Shown here in pieces: positions 2,595 through 22,909 of a stretch of DNA of 23,881 nt. The stretch is from IMG/VR virus record IMGVR_UViG_3300025482_000001, positions 1-23,881 of that record, one strand, 5' to 3'. Source of the DNA: a virus. The notes below the pieces were generated by a model. That model was not told the DNA's origin. It did not search any database and was given only the letters and a program-made list of their open reading frames with translations. Within the stretch, counting starts at the first letter, position 1. Each line of letters opens with the position of its first letter. Both the position numbers and the translations under genes were made by a program.

Positions 2595-3082
2595 TGCTCG
2601 GACAGGGTACGCGCCAGGGCGTCTCCCAACGGGTTCCCGGTCCCGACGCTCTTGGCGGGCTCAGGCGGCTTCGGCTTGCGCGGCCGCGACCGAGCGTCCG
2701 GGAACAGCTCCTCGGCACGGGCCATGCCGCGCTGAGCCGTCGCGCTCTCGCCGAACGAATCCACGTCGGGCAACACCTTCGACAGTGCCTCGTCGAGCCC
2801 GTCGAGCGCCTCGTCGAGCGATCCCCACGCGCCGCTCGTCATCGGTTCGGTCAACGCCGCGTAGGCGACGTCGATCCGGTCACGCAGCGAGAGGCCGTCC
2901 CAGCGCACACCGGCCAGGAGCAACCGGCCGCGCAGATAGCCCTCTCGATGGACCGCCCACGTGCCTATCGCGCGGACGGATTGGTAGGGCGGTTCGTGTA
3001 GAACTCCGTGAGTTTCAACATGATTCGGCCGATGCGCTCCAACTCCTGCGGCCGAGCCTTGTCGAACATCAGCGCGTCCCAC
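2591..3082 (-). CDS. Tail assembly chaperone, frameshifted extension (gpT-like)
   Basis: This open frame overlaps the end of the upstream chaperone gene (2965-3429) in the -1 frame and ends 4 nt into the tape measure gene. In most siphoviruses the second chaperone is made as a fusion by programmed -1 frameshifting and helps polymerise the tail around the tape measure. Here the -1 frame is open from just after a TGA at 3095-3097, so slippage would have to occur between about 3094 and 2965. No canonical X-XXY-YYZ heptamer was seen there; the only weak candidate is a C-CCT slip at the CCT codon 2986-2988. The product from the overlap onward has a helical acidic region and a Pro/Lys-rich segment (RPRKPKPPEP) typical of such extensions. 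The GTG at 3082 is only the first start codon in frame and lacks a good ribosome site, so independent initiation is less likely. Confidence 0.75.
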   Translation of the reverse strand: MGRADVRQGSAAGVGAHRPNHVETHGVLHEPPYQSVRAIGTWAVHREGYLRGRLLLAGVRWDGLSLRDRIDVAYAALTEPMTSGAWGSLDEALDGLDEALSKVLPDVDSFGESATAQRGMARAEELFPDARSRPRKPKPPEPAKSVGTGNPLGDALARTLSEQ

Positions 3083-3429
3083 CGCGCGACGTCGTCACAC
3101 GGCTCCCACGCCTCGACCTCGATCGGTTCGGTGCCATCGGGAGCGTCTTCGGGCACCGGCTGCTCGATCATGACCGGCAACGAGATCGCGAGCACGTCCT
3201 CCATGAACAGGAGAATGTCGGGGTTGTTGTAGACCTGACGGCCGCGCTCGTCGACGCGCACCGCGTTCATCAGCCGCGGCAACACGCCGCCGGCCAACGC
3301 GGGCAGGCAGTGAAACGTCTCACCGCCGAGCGTGAAGGTCGGGCCGACCTTCGGTGCGTCGTGCGGCTCGTCGTCGAAGTCCCAATGCGGCGGCGGCTCC
3401 GGCGCACGGCGGGCTGGCTGGTTGGTCAT
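2965..3429 (-). CDS. Tail assembly chaperone (gpG-like)
   Basis: This 154-residue protein starts at ATG 3429, 12 nt after the gp10-like gene, with a GAGGAG ribosome site in the gap. It has a Pro-rich acidic amino end, then a compact domain containing FTLGGETFHCLP, a pattern commonly seen in actinophage tail assembly chaperones (a short beta hairpin followed by helices). It ends in TNRPTNPSAR. It immediately precedes the tape measure gene and its end is overlapped by an open -1 frame, which is the standard G/GT arrangement. It is expected to bind the tape measure and recruit tail tube subunits without entering the virion. The identification comes mainly from position, size and the overlapping frame rather than a diagnostic motif. 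Confidence 0.78.
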   Translation of the reverse strand: MTNQPARRAPEPPPHWDFDDEPHDAPKVGPTFTLGGETFHCLPALAGGVLPRLMNAVRVDERGRQVYNNPDILLFMEDVLAISLPVMIEQPVPEDAPDGTEPIEVEAWEPCDDVARWDALMFDKARPQELERIGRIMLKLTEFYTNRPTNPSAR

Positions 3430-3894: not shown

Positions 3895-4394
3895 CAGAGC
3901 AGCAACGCTCGGAAGCGGAGTGTGCCGCCAGCCAACCCGCCTTGCTCGGGAAGACTCGACCACCGCTCGAACGCCAGGCCGTTGCACGTCGCCAGCGCGC
4001 CCGCCTGTTGCGCCGCGGCGAGCACGTTGAACATCACCGTGGCGTCGGTGTAGATCACCTTGCTCGCCGCCTGCACCTCCATCGGATCGGGCAACGTGAT
4101 CGACTGCCCGTCCTCGACGATGGTCGGCACACACCGGAGAATCGTCACGCCGATGATCGCCGCGCGCATCGCGAAGCCGAGACCCATCTCGATGAACGCC
4201 TCCTGCGCGACGTCGGCCTCGGTGCCGATCGTGTTCTCCACGAACACGACGAGCGATTCGCAGTCCCACACCACCATGCCGTTGCTCACGTACTGCCGGT
4301 CGGGCAACGGTTCGGCCTCACCGGGCCAGCCGGCCTCGAGCGCGTCGATCGTCGCCTGCCCGAGATCGAACAGCGCGGTGATCGGCAACGGCAT
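3894..4394 (-). CDS. Putative tail terminator or connector protein
   Basis: This is a 166-residue protein starting MPLPITALFDLGQAT at an ATG that overlaps the glycosyltransferase stop by one base (TGATG). It contains VVWDCESLVVFVENTIG followed by a strand-rich centre with ILRCVPTI and a helix-rich carboxyl end around YTDATVMFNVLAAA. These features match a family found in actinophages and actinobacterial prophages just before the gp10-like gene, thought to be a tail terminator or neck protein. The match is to a recalled pattern, so the exact role is inferred. Its downstream partner (gp10-like) and the tail chaperones support a place in head-tail joining. Confidence 0.62.
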   Translation of the reverse strand: MPLPITALFDLGQATIDALEAGWPGEAEPLPDRQYVSNGMVVWDCESLVVFVENTIGTEADVAQEAFIEMGLGFAMRAAIIGVTILRCVPTIVEDGQSITLPDPMEVQAASKVIYTDATVMFNVLAAAQQAGALATCNGLAFERWSSLPEQGGLAGGTLRFRALLL

Positions 4395-5533
4395 CAGAGC
4401 ACTCCCTCGATCGCGGTCACGGCTCGGCGCGATGCGCCACCATCGGTCGAAGCGTACACATAGGCCGCCGCTCGACGTCGGAGTGCTCGCGCCTCGGGGG
4501 GATCAGCCAGCGTGGCTCTCAGCGCCGCCTCGAGATCGCCCGGCCGGTCGCACTGCAACCCCGGGACGTGCGACCAGAAGCGCGCACCGTGCTCGACGTC
4601 GCGGCGGTAGGTCGGCGCGTTGAGGTTCAGCACCGGAATGTCGAGCGCCGCGGCTTCGTAGGCGATCGACGACGAGTCGACGATCAGTGCTGCGGATTGC
4701 GCATTCCGCAACCGGCCGAGCACCACGTCCGGGTCGAGCTCGAACGGGATGCCGAGGCGTTCCCACATCTCCCCGGCGCGGCGCACGTTGCGCGGGTGAG
4801 CGTGACCGAGCCAACGAATTCCGGTATCCGTAGAATCCTGTTCGCGCAGTTCGCGCAGTGCCCGCTCGTACAACGGGAGCGCCGGCATCGTCTCGGGGCA
4901 GACGCCGCACCGCCAGTGACTTGTGATCGCGACGAGTGGTCGTTCACTTGACGGATCGACCCGAGATCGCGTCATAGGTTGCGTCGCTTCGCTTGTAGTC
5001 GGATGCGCGCCGGAATCCCGCGCACGTTCTACGATTCGCTCGTGCTCGCCACCACGGTCAACGTCACGCTCCTCGGGGTCGCCTGCGTCGTCGTCATCGT
5101 GTGCGGCCTGGTCTGGCTGTTCGGACGCCGTCACCGGTAGGAACTGGTCGAGCGCCGGGCATCCCACAGCAGCGACCACAGCCTGCGGATAGAGCGCCCG
5201 CCACTGAGCGGCGACCTGTTCGTTCGGTGCGATGAAGAGCACGACGTGTGAGAGGCCCGGAGCGCCCCCGTAGCCCGCTGGCGGACCGTCTTGGTACATC
5301 TGCCCCGCGCCGTGCTCGCAGTAGACCACCGGCCGATCCCGGTGCTCTCGGGCGTCGATCCACGAGGCGACGATCATCAGCTCACCGGGCGGGATGCCAC
5401 GCGCTCGTCGCCCCCACGGGTGGATTGCCCGACTTGCCCACGTCTCGACCTCATGGCCCGCTTCGCGCAGTGCGTCGACGATCGGCGCGAGATGCCGCCA
5501 GTAGTTCGGCTGGCTCGCGTAGACGTGGATCAT
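4394..5533 (-). CDS. GT-B-fold glycosyl/glycerophosphate-type transferase with an odd internal insert
   Basis: This 379-residue protein starts at an ATG overlapping the previous stop by 4 nt (ATGA). The amino half has a Rossmann-like start (MIHVYASQPN), the EHGAGQMY segment and GCPALDQF. The carboxyl half has LVAITSHWRCG, GHAHPRN and the signature LIVDSSSIAYEAAALDIPVL, which resembles the nucleotide-sugar binding region of CDP-glycerol glycerophosphotransferases and related GT-B enzymes. The likely role is to attach a sugar or polyol phosphate to phage or host surface components together with the adjacent GT4 enzyme and methyltransferase. Residues of roughly 132-197 form a hydrophilic, acidic insert between the two halves that such enzymes normally lack. 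By hand count only 9 of 21 codons for residues 177-197 end in G or C, against 28 of 34 at the amino end of the gene. The insert coincides with a plus-strand ORF (5003-5140). Confidence 0.75.
   Translation of the reverse strand: MIHVYASQPNYWRHLAPIVDALREAGHEVETWASRAIHPWGRRARGIPPGELMIVASWIDAREHRDRPVVYCEHGAGQMYQDGPPAGYGGAPGLSHVVLFIAPNEQVAAQWRALYPQAVVAAVGCPALDQFLPVTASEQPDQAAHDDDDAGDPEERDVDRGGEHERIVERARDSGAHPTTSEATQPMTRSRVDPSSERPLVAITSHWRCGVCPETMPALPLYERALRELREQDSTDTGIRWLGHAHPRNVRRAGEMWERLGIPFELDPDVVLGRLRNAQSAALIVDSSSIAYEAAALDIPVLNLNAPTYRRDVEHGARFWSHVPGLQCDRPGDLEAALRATLADPPEARALRRRAAAYVYASTDGGASRRAVTAIEGVL
4948..4980 (+). promoter_or_regulatory. Possible plus-strand promoter elements upstream of the 45-codon ORF
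   Basis: TTGACG at 4948-4953 matches a -35 box well, and TAGGTT at 4975-4980 resembles actinobacterial -10 boxes (TAnnnT). The 21-nt spacer is longer than the usual 16-19, so this is only suggestive. The elements lie in the low-GC3 part of the glycosyltransferase insert, 22 nt before the plus-strand ATG at 5003. Confidence 0.22.
5003..5140 (+). CDS. Possible small single-pass membrane protein nested in the transferase gene
   Basis: This is a 45-codon plus-strand ORF from ATG 5003 to TAG 5140, opposite the unusual insert of the minus-strand transferase. The product starts MRAGIPRTFYDS, has one long hydrophobic segment (about residues 12-40, including GVACVVVIVCGLVWLF) and ends in the basic tail GRRHR, an orderly single-pass membrane topology. 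By hand count, GC at codon positions 1, 2 and 3 is about 67, 47 and 91 percent, the pattern of real genes in GC-rich DNA. The codon-aligned minus frame shows the reverse (third position 67 percent). No clear Shine-Dalgarno site is visible, and part of the hydrophobicity follows automatically from the acidic codons on the other strand, because GAC read backwards is GTC. Function is unknown; small phage membrane proteins include holins, superinfection-exclusion factors and morons. Confidence 0.45.
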   Translation: MRAGIPRTFYDSLVLATTVNVTLLGVACVVVIVCGLVWLFGRRHR

Positions 5534-5691
5534 CGGCCATAGCGGTGCACGCCGGCCTTGACCGGCACGGCGATGTGCATGGCCCACCAGATCGACCCGA
5601 ACTGCCCGTCGACCCACGCATCGCCGCGGTCCCAATCCGGCCGTTCGTCGACGTCTTCGACCCAGTGCGGCAGCGTGCTCGTGTCGATCAC
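5530..5691 (-). CDS. Small protein of unknown function between the transferases
   Basis: This 53-residue ORF starts at a GTG overlapping the GT4 stop by 4 nt (GTGA), and its own stop overlaps the next gene by 4 nt (ATGA). Both junctions are the translational-coupling type used throughout this phage, which is the main support for it being real. The product is acidic and rich in Trp and Asp in its first half (WVEDVDERPDWDRGD) and ends with WWAMHIAVPVKAGVHRYGR. No family was recognised. Its position suggests an accessory part of the glycosylation cassette, but nothing in the sequence shows a catalytic role. Confidence 0.65.
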   Translation of the reverse strand: MIDTSTLPHWVEDVDERPDWDRGDAWVDGQFGSIWWAMHIAVPVKAGVHRYGR

Positions 5692-6641
5692 AACGACTCC
5701 AACGCCGCGGCGAACGTGTTCAGATCGGCCTGGGTGACGCGCTCGAGTTCGACCGCTCGGCGCAACGCCCGCTCGCTCGCCTTCGCGTACTCCGCAGCGT
5801 CGTCGAGCCGTTCGATCTGCCAGCGCCACGACTGCGCGTTCCGCAGTGGCGCGAAGATGCCCGCACGGCCGAGCGACTCCTTGAGCCCCGGCGTCGGCGC
5901 GGCGATCGTCGGGATGCCGCTGCACGCCGCCTCGATCGCGACGCGCCCCCACGACTCGTAGTGGCTCGGCATCAGCACGAGGCGAGCGCGCGCGTACACA
6001 TCGGCGACGATCTGCCCAGTGCATCGGACGGTGTTCACGTTCGGTGATCGCGCGTGCAACTGCTCGCCGTAGCCGCCGCGCACCGCGAGGAACGACCGAT
6101 CGAGCATCGAGGCGGCGACCTCGTAGAACAGAGCCGCGCCCTTCGCCGCCGTCAGGTTCACGAGCGCGATGTCGGCACGATCCATGGACCGTGGACCATG
6201 AACCATGTACCGATCGACTTCGACGTGCGGGCGCAGGATCAGCGACGGCCCCGGCCACTGTTCCCGACGTGCGAGCCACAGGCTGTTGAACGCCACGAGC
6301 GCCGCGTCGAGCGGCACCTTGTTGAACCGGAGTTGCTTGTCGTTGTGCACCAGGTGAACGAGCGGCTTGCCCGCTGTCCGAGCGACGCGCAACGCGATCG
6401 GCGTGGCGTCGAGATGCGTGAGCACCACATCGACGTCGGCGACCTGAGCGGTCTGTCGGCGTTCGGTCGAAGCGAGCGCGGCGACCGGCACACCCTCGAA
6501 GTTCGTCACTCGCGCCCCGGCGTAGAGCACCGCGACGTCGTGGCCACGCTTGGCCAGGTCGAGCAGGATCGCGTGCAGCATCATCTCCGCGCCGGCCGGT
6601 CGCAGCGGCGGGTAACGATGGACGAGAGCGAGCACCTTCAC
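5688..6641 (-). CDS. Glycosyltransferase family 4-like protein
   Basis: This 317-residue protein starts at a GTG overlapping the methyltransferase stop by 4 nt (GTGA). The amino end, VLALVHRYPPLRPAGAEMML, is the typical GT4 opening with a Gly/Ala-rich loop near residues 15-20. The carboxyl domain carries LMPSHYESWGRVAIEAACSG, in which E229 and E237 form the EX7E motif used by retaining GT-B enzymes to bind the nucleotide sugar, followed by PTIAAPTPGLKE. The length is slightly short for GT4 but both Rossmann domains appear present. It probably transfers a sugar from a nucleotide donor onto a virion, DNA or host-envelope acceptor. The acceptor cannot be read from sequence. Upstream in-frame starts (to 6941) would lie inside the methyltransferase gene and are rejected. 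Confidence 0.83.
   Translation of the reverse strand: MKVLALVHRYPPLRPAGAEMMLHAILLDLAKRGHDVAVLYAGARVTNFEGVPVAALASTERRQTAQVADVDVVLTHLDATPIALRVARTAGKPLVHLVHNDKQLRFNKVPLDAALVAFNSLWLARREQWPGPSLILRPHVEVDRYMVHGPRSMDRADIALVNLTAAKGAALFYEVAASMLDRSFLAVRGGYGEQLHARSPNVNTVRCTGQIVADVYARARLVLMPSHYESWGRVAIEAACSGIPTIAAPTPGLKESLGRAGIFAPLRNAQSWRWQIERLDDAAEYAKASERALRRAVELERVTQADLNTFAAALESL
6184..6211. repeat. Four degenerate 7-bp tandem repeats
   Basis: The plus strand reads four consecutive heptamers ATGGACC, GTGGACC, ATGAACC and ATGTACC. They lie within the GT4 gene at roughly residues 144-153, between its two domains. The total of 28 bp is not a multiple of three, yet the frame stays open. It may be slippage-derived, or chance. 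Confidence 0.5.
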
Positions 6642-7201
6642 TGCGGGCCGAGCATCACCATGACGCAGGCGTACAGCTCGAAGGCGTCGTTGTCGATCAT
6701 CGGCGCGCACGATCGGTCGAGCGCCGCGAAGTCTTCCGGCGTCCAGTGCGAACGGTGATTCTCGGTCGGCCACACGTCCACGTCGGGATTCTGGAAGTAG
6801 TCGCGCGGCGTCGAGATCAGCACGCGACCGCGACACCGACCGAGGAGATGCAGCGCCTCGTCGCGCTCGATGTGTTCGAGCACGTCGAGCATCATCACCA
6901 GGTCGTACGGCACACCCACGTCGATGTCTGCGTGAGCGCACACGTCGCCGACGAACACGTGGTCATAGATCGAGTCGAGCCAGGTGAACCGCTCGATGTA
7001 GCGCGGCTCGGCTTCCTGCGCGTCGAGACGCTCGAATACGCCACCCCGGTCGAGCCCTTCCACGTACTCGCGCAACAGCAGCCCGTACTTGCCGAAGCCG
7101 GGCCCGACGTCGAGCACCGTGATCGGCCGACCCAGCTCGCGATGCACGGCGGCGACCTGATCGCACACCTTCGGTGCGAGCGTCAACAACGACGACGGCA
7201 T
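6638..7201 (-). CDS. Class I SAM-dependent methyltransferase
   Basis: This 187-residue protein starts at ATG 7201, two bases after the adaptor stop, and ends in a 4-nt overlap with the GT4 gene. Motif I is clear at residues 29-40 (VLDVGPGFGKYG), the glycine-rich loop that binds S-adenosylmethionine. It is followed by YDLVMMLDVLEHIE (about 99-112), the motif often seen in small-molecule or sugar methyltransferases, and RVLISTPRDYFQ. A late ENHRSHWTPEDF segment resembles glycan or lipid-type O-methyltransferases. No DNA-methyltransferase motif such as DPPY or NPPY is present, so a DNA base target is unlikely. Given the two glycosyltransferases directly downstream, methylation of the transferred sugar (capping) is the simplest reading, but the substrate is inferred from context. 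Confidence 0.82.
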   Translation of the reverse strand: MPSSLLTLAPKVCDQVAAVHRELGRPITVLDVGPGFGKYGLLLREYVEGLDRGGVFERLDAQEAEPRYIERFTWLDSIYDHVFVGDVCAHADIDVGVPYDLVMMLDVLEHIERDEALHLLGRCRGRVLISTPRDYFQNPDVDVWPTENHRSHWTPEDFAALDRSCAPMIDNDAFELYACVMVMLGPQ

Positions 7202-21549: not shown

Positions 21550-22043
21550 CGCTCGACCTCGTGGCCGGCGAGAAGCGCCGCGGCGCTGGACAGGGCGAGT
21601 GCCCGGGCGATCGGGTCCCACGCACCGGAAGCGTACCGGCGGGCTACGACAACACCGAACGAAATCCACAGGCCGACACACCACGGGCAGGTGATGAACG
21701 CGGCGAGTTTCGGCGCGTCGTCGTCGTCGTGCGGCATCGAGTCCCACTCGGACTCGGTCTGCGTGAGCGGGTAGACACCCTCACCGGGCGCGTCGTTGGC
21801 GAGACCGATCCAGCCGGGAGCGTGCTCGTACGCGCCGCGGATGATGCGTGCTCTGATCGGCCGCGTGATGGTGTCACGAGTGACCAACCGCGTCAGCCGG
21901 TGCGCAGCGAACGCATCGAGCACGAGCACGTCGAGTGTCGATCGGGTGAGACGCTGCACGAGCACGTCGACGTGCGCCTCGGGCGTGCGCGCGATCGTCA
22001 TGCCCTCGGCCCACCACCGTTCGATGATGCGCCGAGTGTTCAT
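21546..22043 (-). CDS. DUF1360-like membrane-associated protein
   Basis: This 165-residue protein starts at an ATG overlapping the preceding stop by 4 nt. It contains LVLDAFAAHRLTRLVTRDTI and RPIRARII, followed, after an insertion, by ITCPWCVGLWISFGVVVARR (Cys119 and Cys122) and a hydrophobic carboxyl end. This order is characteristic of DUF1360 proteins, short membrane-linked proteins encoded by actinobacteria, bacilli and their phages. Their function is unestablished. The longer amino end and the middle DUF-insert (YPLTQTESEWDSMPHDDDD) are larger than in short relatives. Confidence 0.68.
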   Translation of the reverse strand: MNTRRIIERWWAEGMTIARTPEAHVDVLVQRLTRSTLDVLVLDAFAAHRLTRLVTRDTITRPIRARIIRGAYEHAPGWIGLANDAPGEGVYPLTQTESEWDSMPHDDDDAPKLAAFITCPWCVGLWISFGVVVARRYASGAWDPIARALALSSAAALLAGHEVER

Positions 22044-22195
22044 CGAGCCGGCGGTCGATCGAGCACGAGCCCGGAGTCGGGATCACGGACGATGGTGTGC
22101 CGGAACCCGCACGCGTCGCACGCCCACACCTTCGTCGGGTCGTCCACCGAGACGTCGTCGACCGAGGTCGCCGACTCGTGCGAGCACTGGGTCAC
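22040..22195 (-). CDS. Very small zinc-binding-like protein
   Basis: This 51-residue protein has a GTG start at 22195, overlapping the Acb2-like gene's stop by 4 nt, and it overlaps the next gene by 4 nt too. It opens with MTQCSHES (Cys4, His6) and has WACDACGFRHTIV (Cys26, Cys29, His33), a likely zinc knuckle. The tail is VLDRPPAR. The function is unknown. It is the downstream partner of the Acb2-like protein. Confidence 0.68.
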   Translation of the reverse strand: MTQCSHESATSVDDVSVDDPTKVWACDACGFRHTIVRDPDSGLVLDRPPAR

Positions 22196-22728
22196 GCGCC
22201 GCCGCCTTGGTTGCGCGCGATGCCCGCCTTCGTGTGCATCGAGCACTCTTCGAGCTTCGTGAGCGCGGTCGACTGCTCACGACCGGGCGGCACGTTGTTG
22301 ACGATCCAGTGCGCCATCTCCACGAACTGATCGGTGGCGTCGTCCATCACCTGAGCGACGTGATCGTTCTTCGGCGGGTGGTTGCGGAAGTCGTTCTCCA
22401 CTCGGGCGTGCAGGTCTTGGGCCATCGGTTCTCCTTGGTCGTAGCGGACGATCTCGTCTTCGTACGGGCCGCCGACGTCGAGGTCACCGGCCGTGATCCC
22501 GCGCCGTTGCGCCGCCATCGCATCATCGAACACCGTCAACGCGGCGATCACACCGCGGTCACGCGCCACGGCGCCGTAGTGCAGATCGCCGTGTCCCCAC
22601 CGTCGCAGCTCGGTCGCGAGCACGTGCGCGACGTGCCGCCAATCGACCGACAGCAGCTCGGGGTCGCCGTAGCAGACGGTGTTCTTCACGCGACGTTCGA
22701 GGCGCGGGCGCAGCGGCGGTGGTTCCAC
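22192..22728 (-). CDS. Protein with carboxyl-terminal Acb2/Tad1-like (anti-CBASS or anti-Thoeris) domain
   Basis: This 178-residue frame starts at GTG 22728, one base after the previous stop. Residues 1-101 are a domain of unknown function (VDWRHVAHVLATELRRWG, ALTVFDDAMAAQRRGI). Residues 102-178 carry the hallmarks of the Acb2/Tad1 hairpin family: NHPPK near residues 116-120, a helix with MDDATDQFVEMAHWIV, and PPGREQSTALTKLEECSM followed by AGIARNQ. Acb2 proteins soak up cyclic nucleotides made by CBASS, and Tad1 relatives soak up the Thoeris signal. A strong ribosome site (AAGGAG) lies 5 nt before an in-frame ATG at 22425 that would give the 77-residue hairpin domain alone, the normal size for a small sponge. 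So this may be a fusion, two products from one frame, or a spacer gene running into the next. The signal bound cannot be predicted. Confidence 0.72.
   Translation of the reverse strand: MEPPPLRPRLERRVKNTVCYGDPELLSVDWRHVAHVLATELRRWGHGDLHYGAVARDRGVIAALTVFDDAMAAQRRGITAGDLDVGGPYEDEIVRYDQGEPMAQDLHARVENDFRNHPPKNDHVAQVMDDATDQFVEMAHWIVNNVPPGREQSTALTKLEECSMHTKAGIARNQGGGA
22431..22436 (-). promoter_or_regulatory. Ribosome site for stand-alone Acb2-like domain
   Basis: AAGGAG on the minus strand lies five bases before ATG 22423-22425, inside and in frame with the longer ORF. It suggests the Acb2-like domain is also, or only, made alone. Confidence 0.7.
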
Positions 22729-22729
22729 C

Positions 22730-22909
22730 TCAGACTCGGCGGGCTCGGTGCGTGCGCTTCTTCGCGCGGCGTTGCTCGATCATCTGCCGCCGGGCTCGAG
22801 ACCAGCCGCCCCACCCCTTGCGCCTCTTCCCGTTCGGGAACGCGTCGACGATCGGGTAACGCTCGTGGGCCTTGCCGTACACGCCGAGCGCGCCACGCTT
22901 GCCGGTCAC
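22730..22909 (-). CDS. Small basic protein of unknown function
   Basis: This 59-residue protein starts at a GTG overlapping the previous stop by 4 nt (GTGA). It begins MTGKRGALGVYGKAHERYP and ends with a strongly basic helix (RRQMIEQRRAKKRTHRARR). Basicity suggests nucleic-acid binding or electrostatic packing, but no motif was recognised. The 4-nt coupling supports the reading frame. Confidence 0.62.
   Translation of the reverse strand: MTGKRGALGVYGKAHERYPIVDAFPNGKRRKGWGGWSRARRQMIEQRRAKKRTHRARRV

What the first reader, a model, noticed from the sequence alone, without database searches (positions are those of the whole stretch)
22192..22728. Acb2/Tad1-like sponge domain in one frame with an unrelated domain and its own internal start
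Seen: NHPPK plus PPGREQSTALTKLEE and AGIARN in the last 77 residues, an uninterrupted frame of 101 codons before it, and an AAGGAG site 5 nt before the internal ATG. Known: proteins of the Acb2/Tad1 hairpin family bind cyclic nucleotides or Thoeris signals and protect phages from CBASS or Thoeris. Inference: the phage counters signalling-based immunity, and the long form may add a second function or extend the sponge. A fused or dual-start version would be an unusual architecture.
Basis: partly seen in the sequence, partly recalled or inferred. Interest (0 to 1): 0.7.

Follow-up and report, generated by a model that had tools for sequence, protein, structure and literature searches.

The report
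Acb2-type hairpin sponge, N-terminally extended frame
A phage contig carries a small gene of a known family whose members soak up bacterial immune signals; it runs in one frame with an upstream stretch of unknown function because no stop codon separates them, and it has lost residues that a studied relative needs to bind one class of signal.

Summary
On the minus strand, 22728-22192, one 178-codon frame ends in 77 residues that match Pfam PF24729 (Acb2/Tad1 hairpin), E = 1.5e-8, above the curated cut-off. The internal ATG (22425) has AAGGAG 5 nt upstream. It sits where almost all of about 120 viral relatives start, so the stand-alone 77-residue hairpin is the family's normal product. The upstream 101 codons look coding in the same frame, but match nothing searched. 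They are followed by no stop. The relative L011 shows the ordinary arrangement: the upstream gene, in the same frame, ends in a TGA overlapping the ribosome-binding site (TGA GGA GAA CGC ATG). The window reads CAA GGA GAA CCG ATG. So the DNA encodes a short sponge and, by read-through, a long form. Extended forms occur elsewhere (L045, L040, L010), so the architecture is uncommon but not unique. The window's hairpin has Asn, Thr and Lys where relatives have Tyr, Arg and Asn; two of these columns align with Tyr8 and Lys23 of T4 Acb2, and Tyr8 is needed for cyclic-dinucleotide binding. Five relatives share the full swap. Sponge function is likely, ligand uncertain. A variant of a known kind.

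The parts
22192..22728 (-). Full frame, 178 codons from GTG 22728 (1 nt after the TGA of the previous gene) to TGA 22194-22192; potential long form
22192..22425 (-). Stand-alone Acb2/Tad1 hairpin protein, 77 aa, ATG 22425; short helix 2-12, long helices 21-44 and 49-71
   Evidence: Pfam PF24729 E 1.5e-8; phrog_1454; model pLDDT 88.6; start position as in relatives
22431..22436 (-). AAGGAG ribosome-binding site 5 nt before ATG 22425; also read as codons inside the long frame (CAA GGA GAA)
22426..22728 (-). Upstream 101 codons, coding-like, no relative found; predicted helical at low confidence
   Evidence: model
22381..22383 (-). Codon of hairpin residue Asn15, in the column of T4 Acb2 Tyr8 / PaP2 Acb2 Tyr11
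   Evidence: T4 Y8A data in PMC12657218
22333..22335 (-). Codon of hairpin residue Thr31, in the column of T4 Lys23 / PaP2 Lys26 (Arg in most relatives)
22228..22230 (-). Codon of hairpin residue Lys66 (Asn in most relatives)
22040..22195 (-). Next gene downstream, GTG overlapping the hairpin stop (GTGA); small Cys-containing zinc-ribbon-like protein, 51 aa
   Evidence: no family above cut-off
22730..22909 (-). Preceding gene, 59 aa, basic, no family; its TGA lies 1 nt before GTG 22728

Best explanation
The last 77 codons are an accessory phage gene for an Acb2-type hairpin sponge, translated mainly from the internal ATG 22425 behind its own AAGGAG. The upstream ORF is a different small gene of a tightly packed operon in the same frame. 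Its in-frame stop is absent (CAA where the relative L011 has TGA), so ribosomes that start at GTG 22728 would make a 178-residue fusion, while those loading at AAGGAG make the sponge. Shown: hairpin family, start position, site, missing stop, coding-like upstream frame. Inferred: the protein oligomerises and sequesters a nucleotide immune signal during infection, blunting CBASS, Thoeris or similar signalling. Also inferred: because the Tyr and Lys/Arg columns of the cyclic-dinucleotide site read Asn and Thr, with a new Lys about one helical turn away, the ligand probably differs from that of T4 or PaP2 Acb2. The invariant Arg49 (aligned with PaP2 Arg67, which I recall as a trinucleotide contact) is kept, so a cyclic trinucleotide is one candidate.
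For: Pfam PF24729 above cut-off; phrog_1454. At least 424 viral stretches encode relatives. About 120 relatives examined start mostly 8-17 residues before the conserved Phe, as the internal ATG does. The model is a short N helix plus two long antiparallel helices, the Acb2 protomer description in PMC12043709. The best BFVD matches are Acb2/Tad1 hairpin proteins. L011 has the upstream gene in the same frame closed by TGA overlapping the ribosome-binding site. L010 has AAGGAG at the same spacing and CAA at the stop position. Triad substitution. Two relatives with the same portal lack any hairpin between the upstream genes and DUF1360/portal, so the gene is accessory.
Against: No binding or infection data exist. 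Sequence similarity to the experimentally studied Acb2 proteins is remote: hhalign with T4 covers 21 columns at 70%. PDB structural matches to Acb2 (7uq2 Z 6.2, 8h2x Z 5.4) do not stand above unrelated helical bundles. Residues aligned with the dinucleotide site are replaced. Use of GTG 22728 is unproven and it has no ribosome-binding site.
Confidence: 0.6

Rival explanations
1. Purposeful bifunctional fusion: the long form is the main product, the N part adding a second activity or docking the sponge, and the internal start is secondary.
For: The frame tiles exactly with the previous gene (TGA-G-GTG) and is coding-like throughout. Other phages have N-extended hairpin proteins with their own ribosome-binding site, L045 and L040. 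Tad1 itself is a beta domain fused to a hairpin (PMC12043709).
Against: No relative of the N part anywhere searched. The strong site is at the internal ATG and none is at GTG 22728 or 22689. Most relatives start at the internal position.
Confidence: 0.2
2. Only the short form exists: the upstream frame is open by chance in G+C-rich DNA or is a decayed gene that is not translated.
For: Long open frames upstream are common in relatives (37 of 121 have 45 codons or more) and most in G+C-rich DNA are not coding-like. The N part scores below 99% of true-gene windows and has no homologue.
Against: It scores above 99.5% of stop-free wrong-frame windows, no other frame of the six scores well there, and a gap of 300 nt would be unusual in this packed operon.
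Confidence: 0.25
3. The hairpin is not a sponge here: a lineage that lost the nucleotide pocket and serves another role, for example in virion assembly or regulation near the portal.
For: Tyr and Arg/Lys of the dinucleotide-site columns are replaced. A Gordonia phage has three divergent hairpin-like ORFs around its terminase and portal genes.
Against: Arg49, Glu50, Thr56 and Arg71 are kept. The substitution is coordinated and includes a new Lys, which suggests a changed pocket rather than decay. Two relatives with the same portal do without the gene.
Confidence: 0.2
4. The missing stop is an assembly or sequencing error.
For: Single-source metagenome contig. The relative L011 has a stop at this codon.
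Against: TGA to CAA needs two changes, and L010, from another metagenome, also has CAA there. Other single-base routes to a stop in this stretch are not excluded.
Confidence: 0.05

Closest known systems
Acb2 (anti-CBASS 2; T4 Vs.4, PDB 7uq2; PaP2, PDB 8h2j/8h2x)
   Same: Size, short helix plus helical hairpin, Thr of the TKLEE motif, Tyr/Lys columns alignable
   Different: Remote in sequence. Tyr8/11 column is Asn and Lys23/26 column is Thr here. Has an upstream in-frame extension. No binding data.
Tad1 (Thoeris anti-defense 1, PDB 7uav and others)
   Same: Hairpin with SRE..ALT..EEA motif; also an N-terminal part fused to the hairpin
   Different: Tad1's N part is a beta sheet (PMC12043709); the window's N part is predicted helical at low confidence and shows no match to it
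Pfam PF24729 hairpin proteins of actinophages (Gordonia ChisanaKitsune gp20, Streptomyces KimJongPhill gp38, Arthrobacter Jasmine gp9; Microbacterium Statler gp57 in PMC13348362 is a reported putative Acb2, not aligned here)
   Same: 34-38% identical over the hairpin; small genes in operons, some next to the portal
   Different: Mostly Tyr-Arg-Asn at the three positions; KimJongPhill extends at the C end instead
L011 and the L104/L121/L123/L125 group (IMG/VR)
   Same: Same Asn-Thr-Lys triad
   Different: L011 has a stop between the upstream gene and the hairpin; none shares the N part

Membership tests
Acb2/Tad1 hairpin domain (PF24729) | Profile match above the curated cut-off | tested here: met
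   35.1 bits against 27, positions 3-58 of 58
Acb2/Tad1 hairpin domain (PF24729) | Two long antiparallel helices | tested here: met
   Model, pLDDT 91-97 over the helices
Acb2 (anti-CBASS sponge) | Stand-alone protein of about 70-95 residues with short N helix and hairpin | tested here: met
   For the 77-aa form; description in PMC12043709
Acb2 (anti-CBASS sponge) | Tyr of the cyclic-dinucleotide site (T4 Tyr8, PaP2 Tyr11) | tested here: not met
   Asn15 in that column; T4 Y8A loses binding (PMC12657218, PMC12657230)
Acb2 (anti-CBASS sponge) | Lys/Arg at T4 Lys23 / PaP2 Lys26 | tested here: not met
   Thr31 in that column; the role of PaP2 Lys26 is from memory
Acb2 (anti-CBASS sponge) | Thr at T4 Thr68 (T68M lowers affinity, PMC12657230) | tested here: met
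   Thr56 in that column
Acb2 (anti-CBASS sponge) | Fold match to solved Acb2 | tested here: inconclusive
   7uq2 Z 6.2 and 8h2x Z 5.4, not above unrelated helical proteins
Acb2 (anti-CBASS sponge) | Hexamer that binds cyclic nucleotides | not testable with these tools
   Needs protein
Tad1 | N-terminal antiparallel beta sheet before the hairpin | tested here: inconclusive
   N part modelled as helices, pLDDT about 50-70, without homologues
Tad1 | Binding of gcADPR | not testable with these tools
   Needs protein

The most novel reading that the evidence does not exclude
A branch of hairpin sponges has rewired its nucleotide pocket by a coordinated Tyr-Arg-Asn to Asn-Thr-Lys change and so targets an immune signal other than those of known Acb2, and this phage makes it in two forms, one fused to a second domain that has no known relative.
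Probability: 0.2. Interest if true: 0.6.

Novelty: new variant of a known kind. Interest (0 to 1): 0.36.

Why it matters
Sponges of this family can block several nucleotide-based immune systems, and Acb2 also triggers the Panoptes guard (PMC12657218). A natural variant lacking the known dinucleotide-site residues could reveal another signal, or a way to block CBASS without setting off Panoptes. The same-frame arrangement also shows how such accessory genes could become fused to neighbours by losing one stop codon.

Tried and rejected
N part: Pfam, PHROGs, NCBIfam, PADLOC (with the whole protein), PDB sequences, phages, plasmids, viral contigs and genome contigs gave nothing usable. The alanine racemase lead (E 0.12) was dismissed as chance. 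PDB sequence hits of the hairpin to armadillo designs are spurious summed repeat scores. The KimJongPhill match that seemed to extend into the N part lies across the end of the upstream gene. Most long open upstream frames in G+C-rich relatives are wrong-frame reading of the neighbouring gene, not fusions. L021, L049 and L064 have upstream same-frame stretches with weak or no coding signal and are not counted as fusions. L045 is counted because of its two ribosome-binding sites, although its upstream stretch has only a neutral codon score. A hairpin tree is too poorly supported to say whether the Asn-Thr-Lys change arose once or twice. Acb2-specific residue papers are not in the library, so the PaP2 Lys26 and Arg67 roles are from memory.

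Full report
What is there. The feature lies on the minus strand. The frame 22728-22192 has 178 codons. The window is itself an IMG/VR virus record of 23,881 bases. Its minus-strand genes include a minor tail/tape-measure-like protein, major tail and head proteins, a MuF-like/portal-associated protein and a portal, related at a distance to actinobacteriophages. Around the finding the genes tile tightly: the 59-aa gene 22909-22730 ends in TGA 1 nt before GTG 22728; the hairpin ends in a TGA overlapped by the GTG of a 51-aa Cys-containing gene; that gene is followed by ATGA and a DUF1360 protein.

The hairpin. The last 77 residues match PF24729, Acb2/Tad1 hairpin, E 1.5e-8, 35.1 bits against a cut-off of 27, and phrog_1454, E 1.9e-15. 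An alignment-based scan of viral contigs found at least 424 stretches that encode relatives and a second scan added a divergent set. The profile also matches a solved 'Acb2 homolog 43' (9ptq, E 1.6e-10) and Tad1 chains (E 0.001). The model of the 77 residues has a short helix and two long antiparallel helices, mean pLDDT 88.6, as described for the Acb2 protomer in PMC12043709. The nearest predicted viral structures are Acb2/Tad1 hairpin proteins. Against solved structures the match to Acb2 (7uq2, 8h2x) is present but no better than to unrelated helical bundles, so the fold comparison alone proves little.

Start and fusion. In nearly all relatives the protein begins 8-17 residues before the conserved Phe. 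The window's ATG 22425, 12 residues before Phe13 and 5 nt behind AAGGAG, is exactly there. The 101 codons upstream are coding-like: the in-frame codon score is +16 against -33 and -87 for the other minus frames, and only 0.5% of stop-free wrong-frame windows score as high, though true genes usually score higher. They have no detectable relative. No stop separates the two parts. The relative L011 explains the arrangement. Its upstream gene (ending ...GEFEWIETDGSTGPTVGT) is in the same frame and stops with a TGA that overlaps the ribosome-binding site: ACC TGA GGA GAA CGC ATG. The window reads GAC CAA GGA GAA CCG ATG. L010, the closest hairpin, reads CGA CAA GGA GAG CAA GTG and also has a short open in-frame stretch before it. 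So the long form looks like a read-through fusion of neighbours whose shared-frame stop is missing. Similar cases exist: L045 (750-1274) has an upstream ORF with its own strong site, an internal site plus ATG, and no stop; L040 (410-919) has a 90-residue N extension. Several relatives have C extensions. Whether GTG 22728 is used is unknown; it has no ribosome-binding site and would depend on coupling.

Residues. In the family Phe13, His16, Arg49, Glu50, Thr56, Ala67, Ala70 and Arg71 are invariant or nearly so and all are kept. Three conserved positions differ: Tyr to Asn15, Arg to Thr31, Asn to Lys66. An unsupervised alignment places T4 Tyr8 and PaP2 Tyr11 in the Asn15 column, and T4 Lys23 and PaP2 Lys26 in the Thr31 column. 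T4 Y8A loses cyclic-dinucleotide binding (PMC12657218, PMC12657230). Six sequences have Thr at column 31 (window, L011, L104, L121, L123, L125) and all six have Asn15 and Lys66; no other sequence has the triad. They may descend from one or two events; the tree cannot tell. Position 66 packs near 31 in an antiparallel hairpin with its turn at 45-48, so the positive charge may have moved from one helix to the other. That is inference. The invariant Arg49 aligns with PaP2 Arg67, which I recall as a cyclic-trinucleotide contact but could not check.

Context. Two contigs with the same portal and DUF1360 proteins (L003, L092) carry no hairpin upstream. In L092 the terminase is followed by other genes. 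The hairpin is thus an optional gene of this region, as expected for a counter-defence gene. In Gordonia phages the hairpin gene lies directly after the portal gene.

Mechanism and verdict. Most likely this is an accessory Acb2-type sponge made from the internal ATG, with a read-through long form as a by-product or a young fusion, and with a ligand other than the standard dinucleotides. Family membership at the domain level is firm. Membership in 'Acb2' as a dinucleotide sponge is not claimed, because the Tyr and Lys columns fail. That it works like a sponge remains likely but unproven.

Noticed in passing
L004 (Gordonia phage ChisanaKitsune) about 140-346, 2990-3196 and 6013-6228: Three divergent hairpin-like genes (gp11, gp18, gp20) in one phage around terminase and portal; E 1e-7, 1e-5 and 1e-31 with the family profile. 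Could form mixed oligomers or serve a non-sponge role.
   Followed up: partly
L008 1983-2198 (Cyanophage S-2L, record about 35199-35414): An Acb2/Tad1-like hairpin ORF (MSITNDELHTRFTYHPVKEG...) between S2L_47 and S2L_48 with no annotated gene.
   Followed up: partly
Paenibacillus phages, e.g. L009 2001-2216: Hairpin proteins are annotated as 'putative phosphomannomutase' in several records, which looks like a misannotation.
   Followed up: no
L104, L121, L123, L125: A hairpin subgroup with FTNR.P, SRFRS and KKA.VFT: the same Asn-Thr-Lys triad and a C-terminal Phe resembling T4 Acb2 Phe82.
   Followed up: partly
L045 750-1274: A second same-frame upstream ORF plus hairpin, each with its own ribosome-binding site and no stop between.
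   Followed up: partly
window 5688-6941 and 4394-5635, minus: A group 1 glycosyltransferase (PF13692, phrog_26352) and a second, weakly matched sugar/glycerophosphate-transferase-like protein among the virion genes.
   Followed up: no
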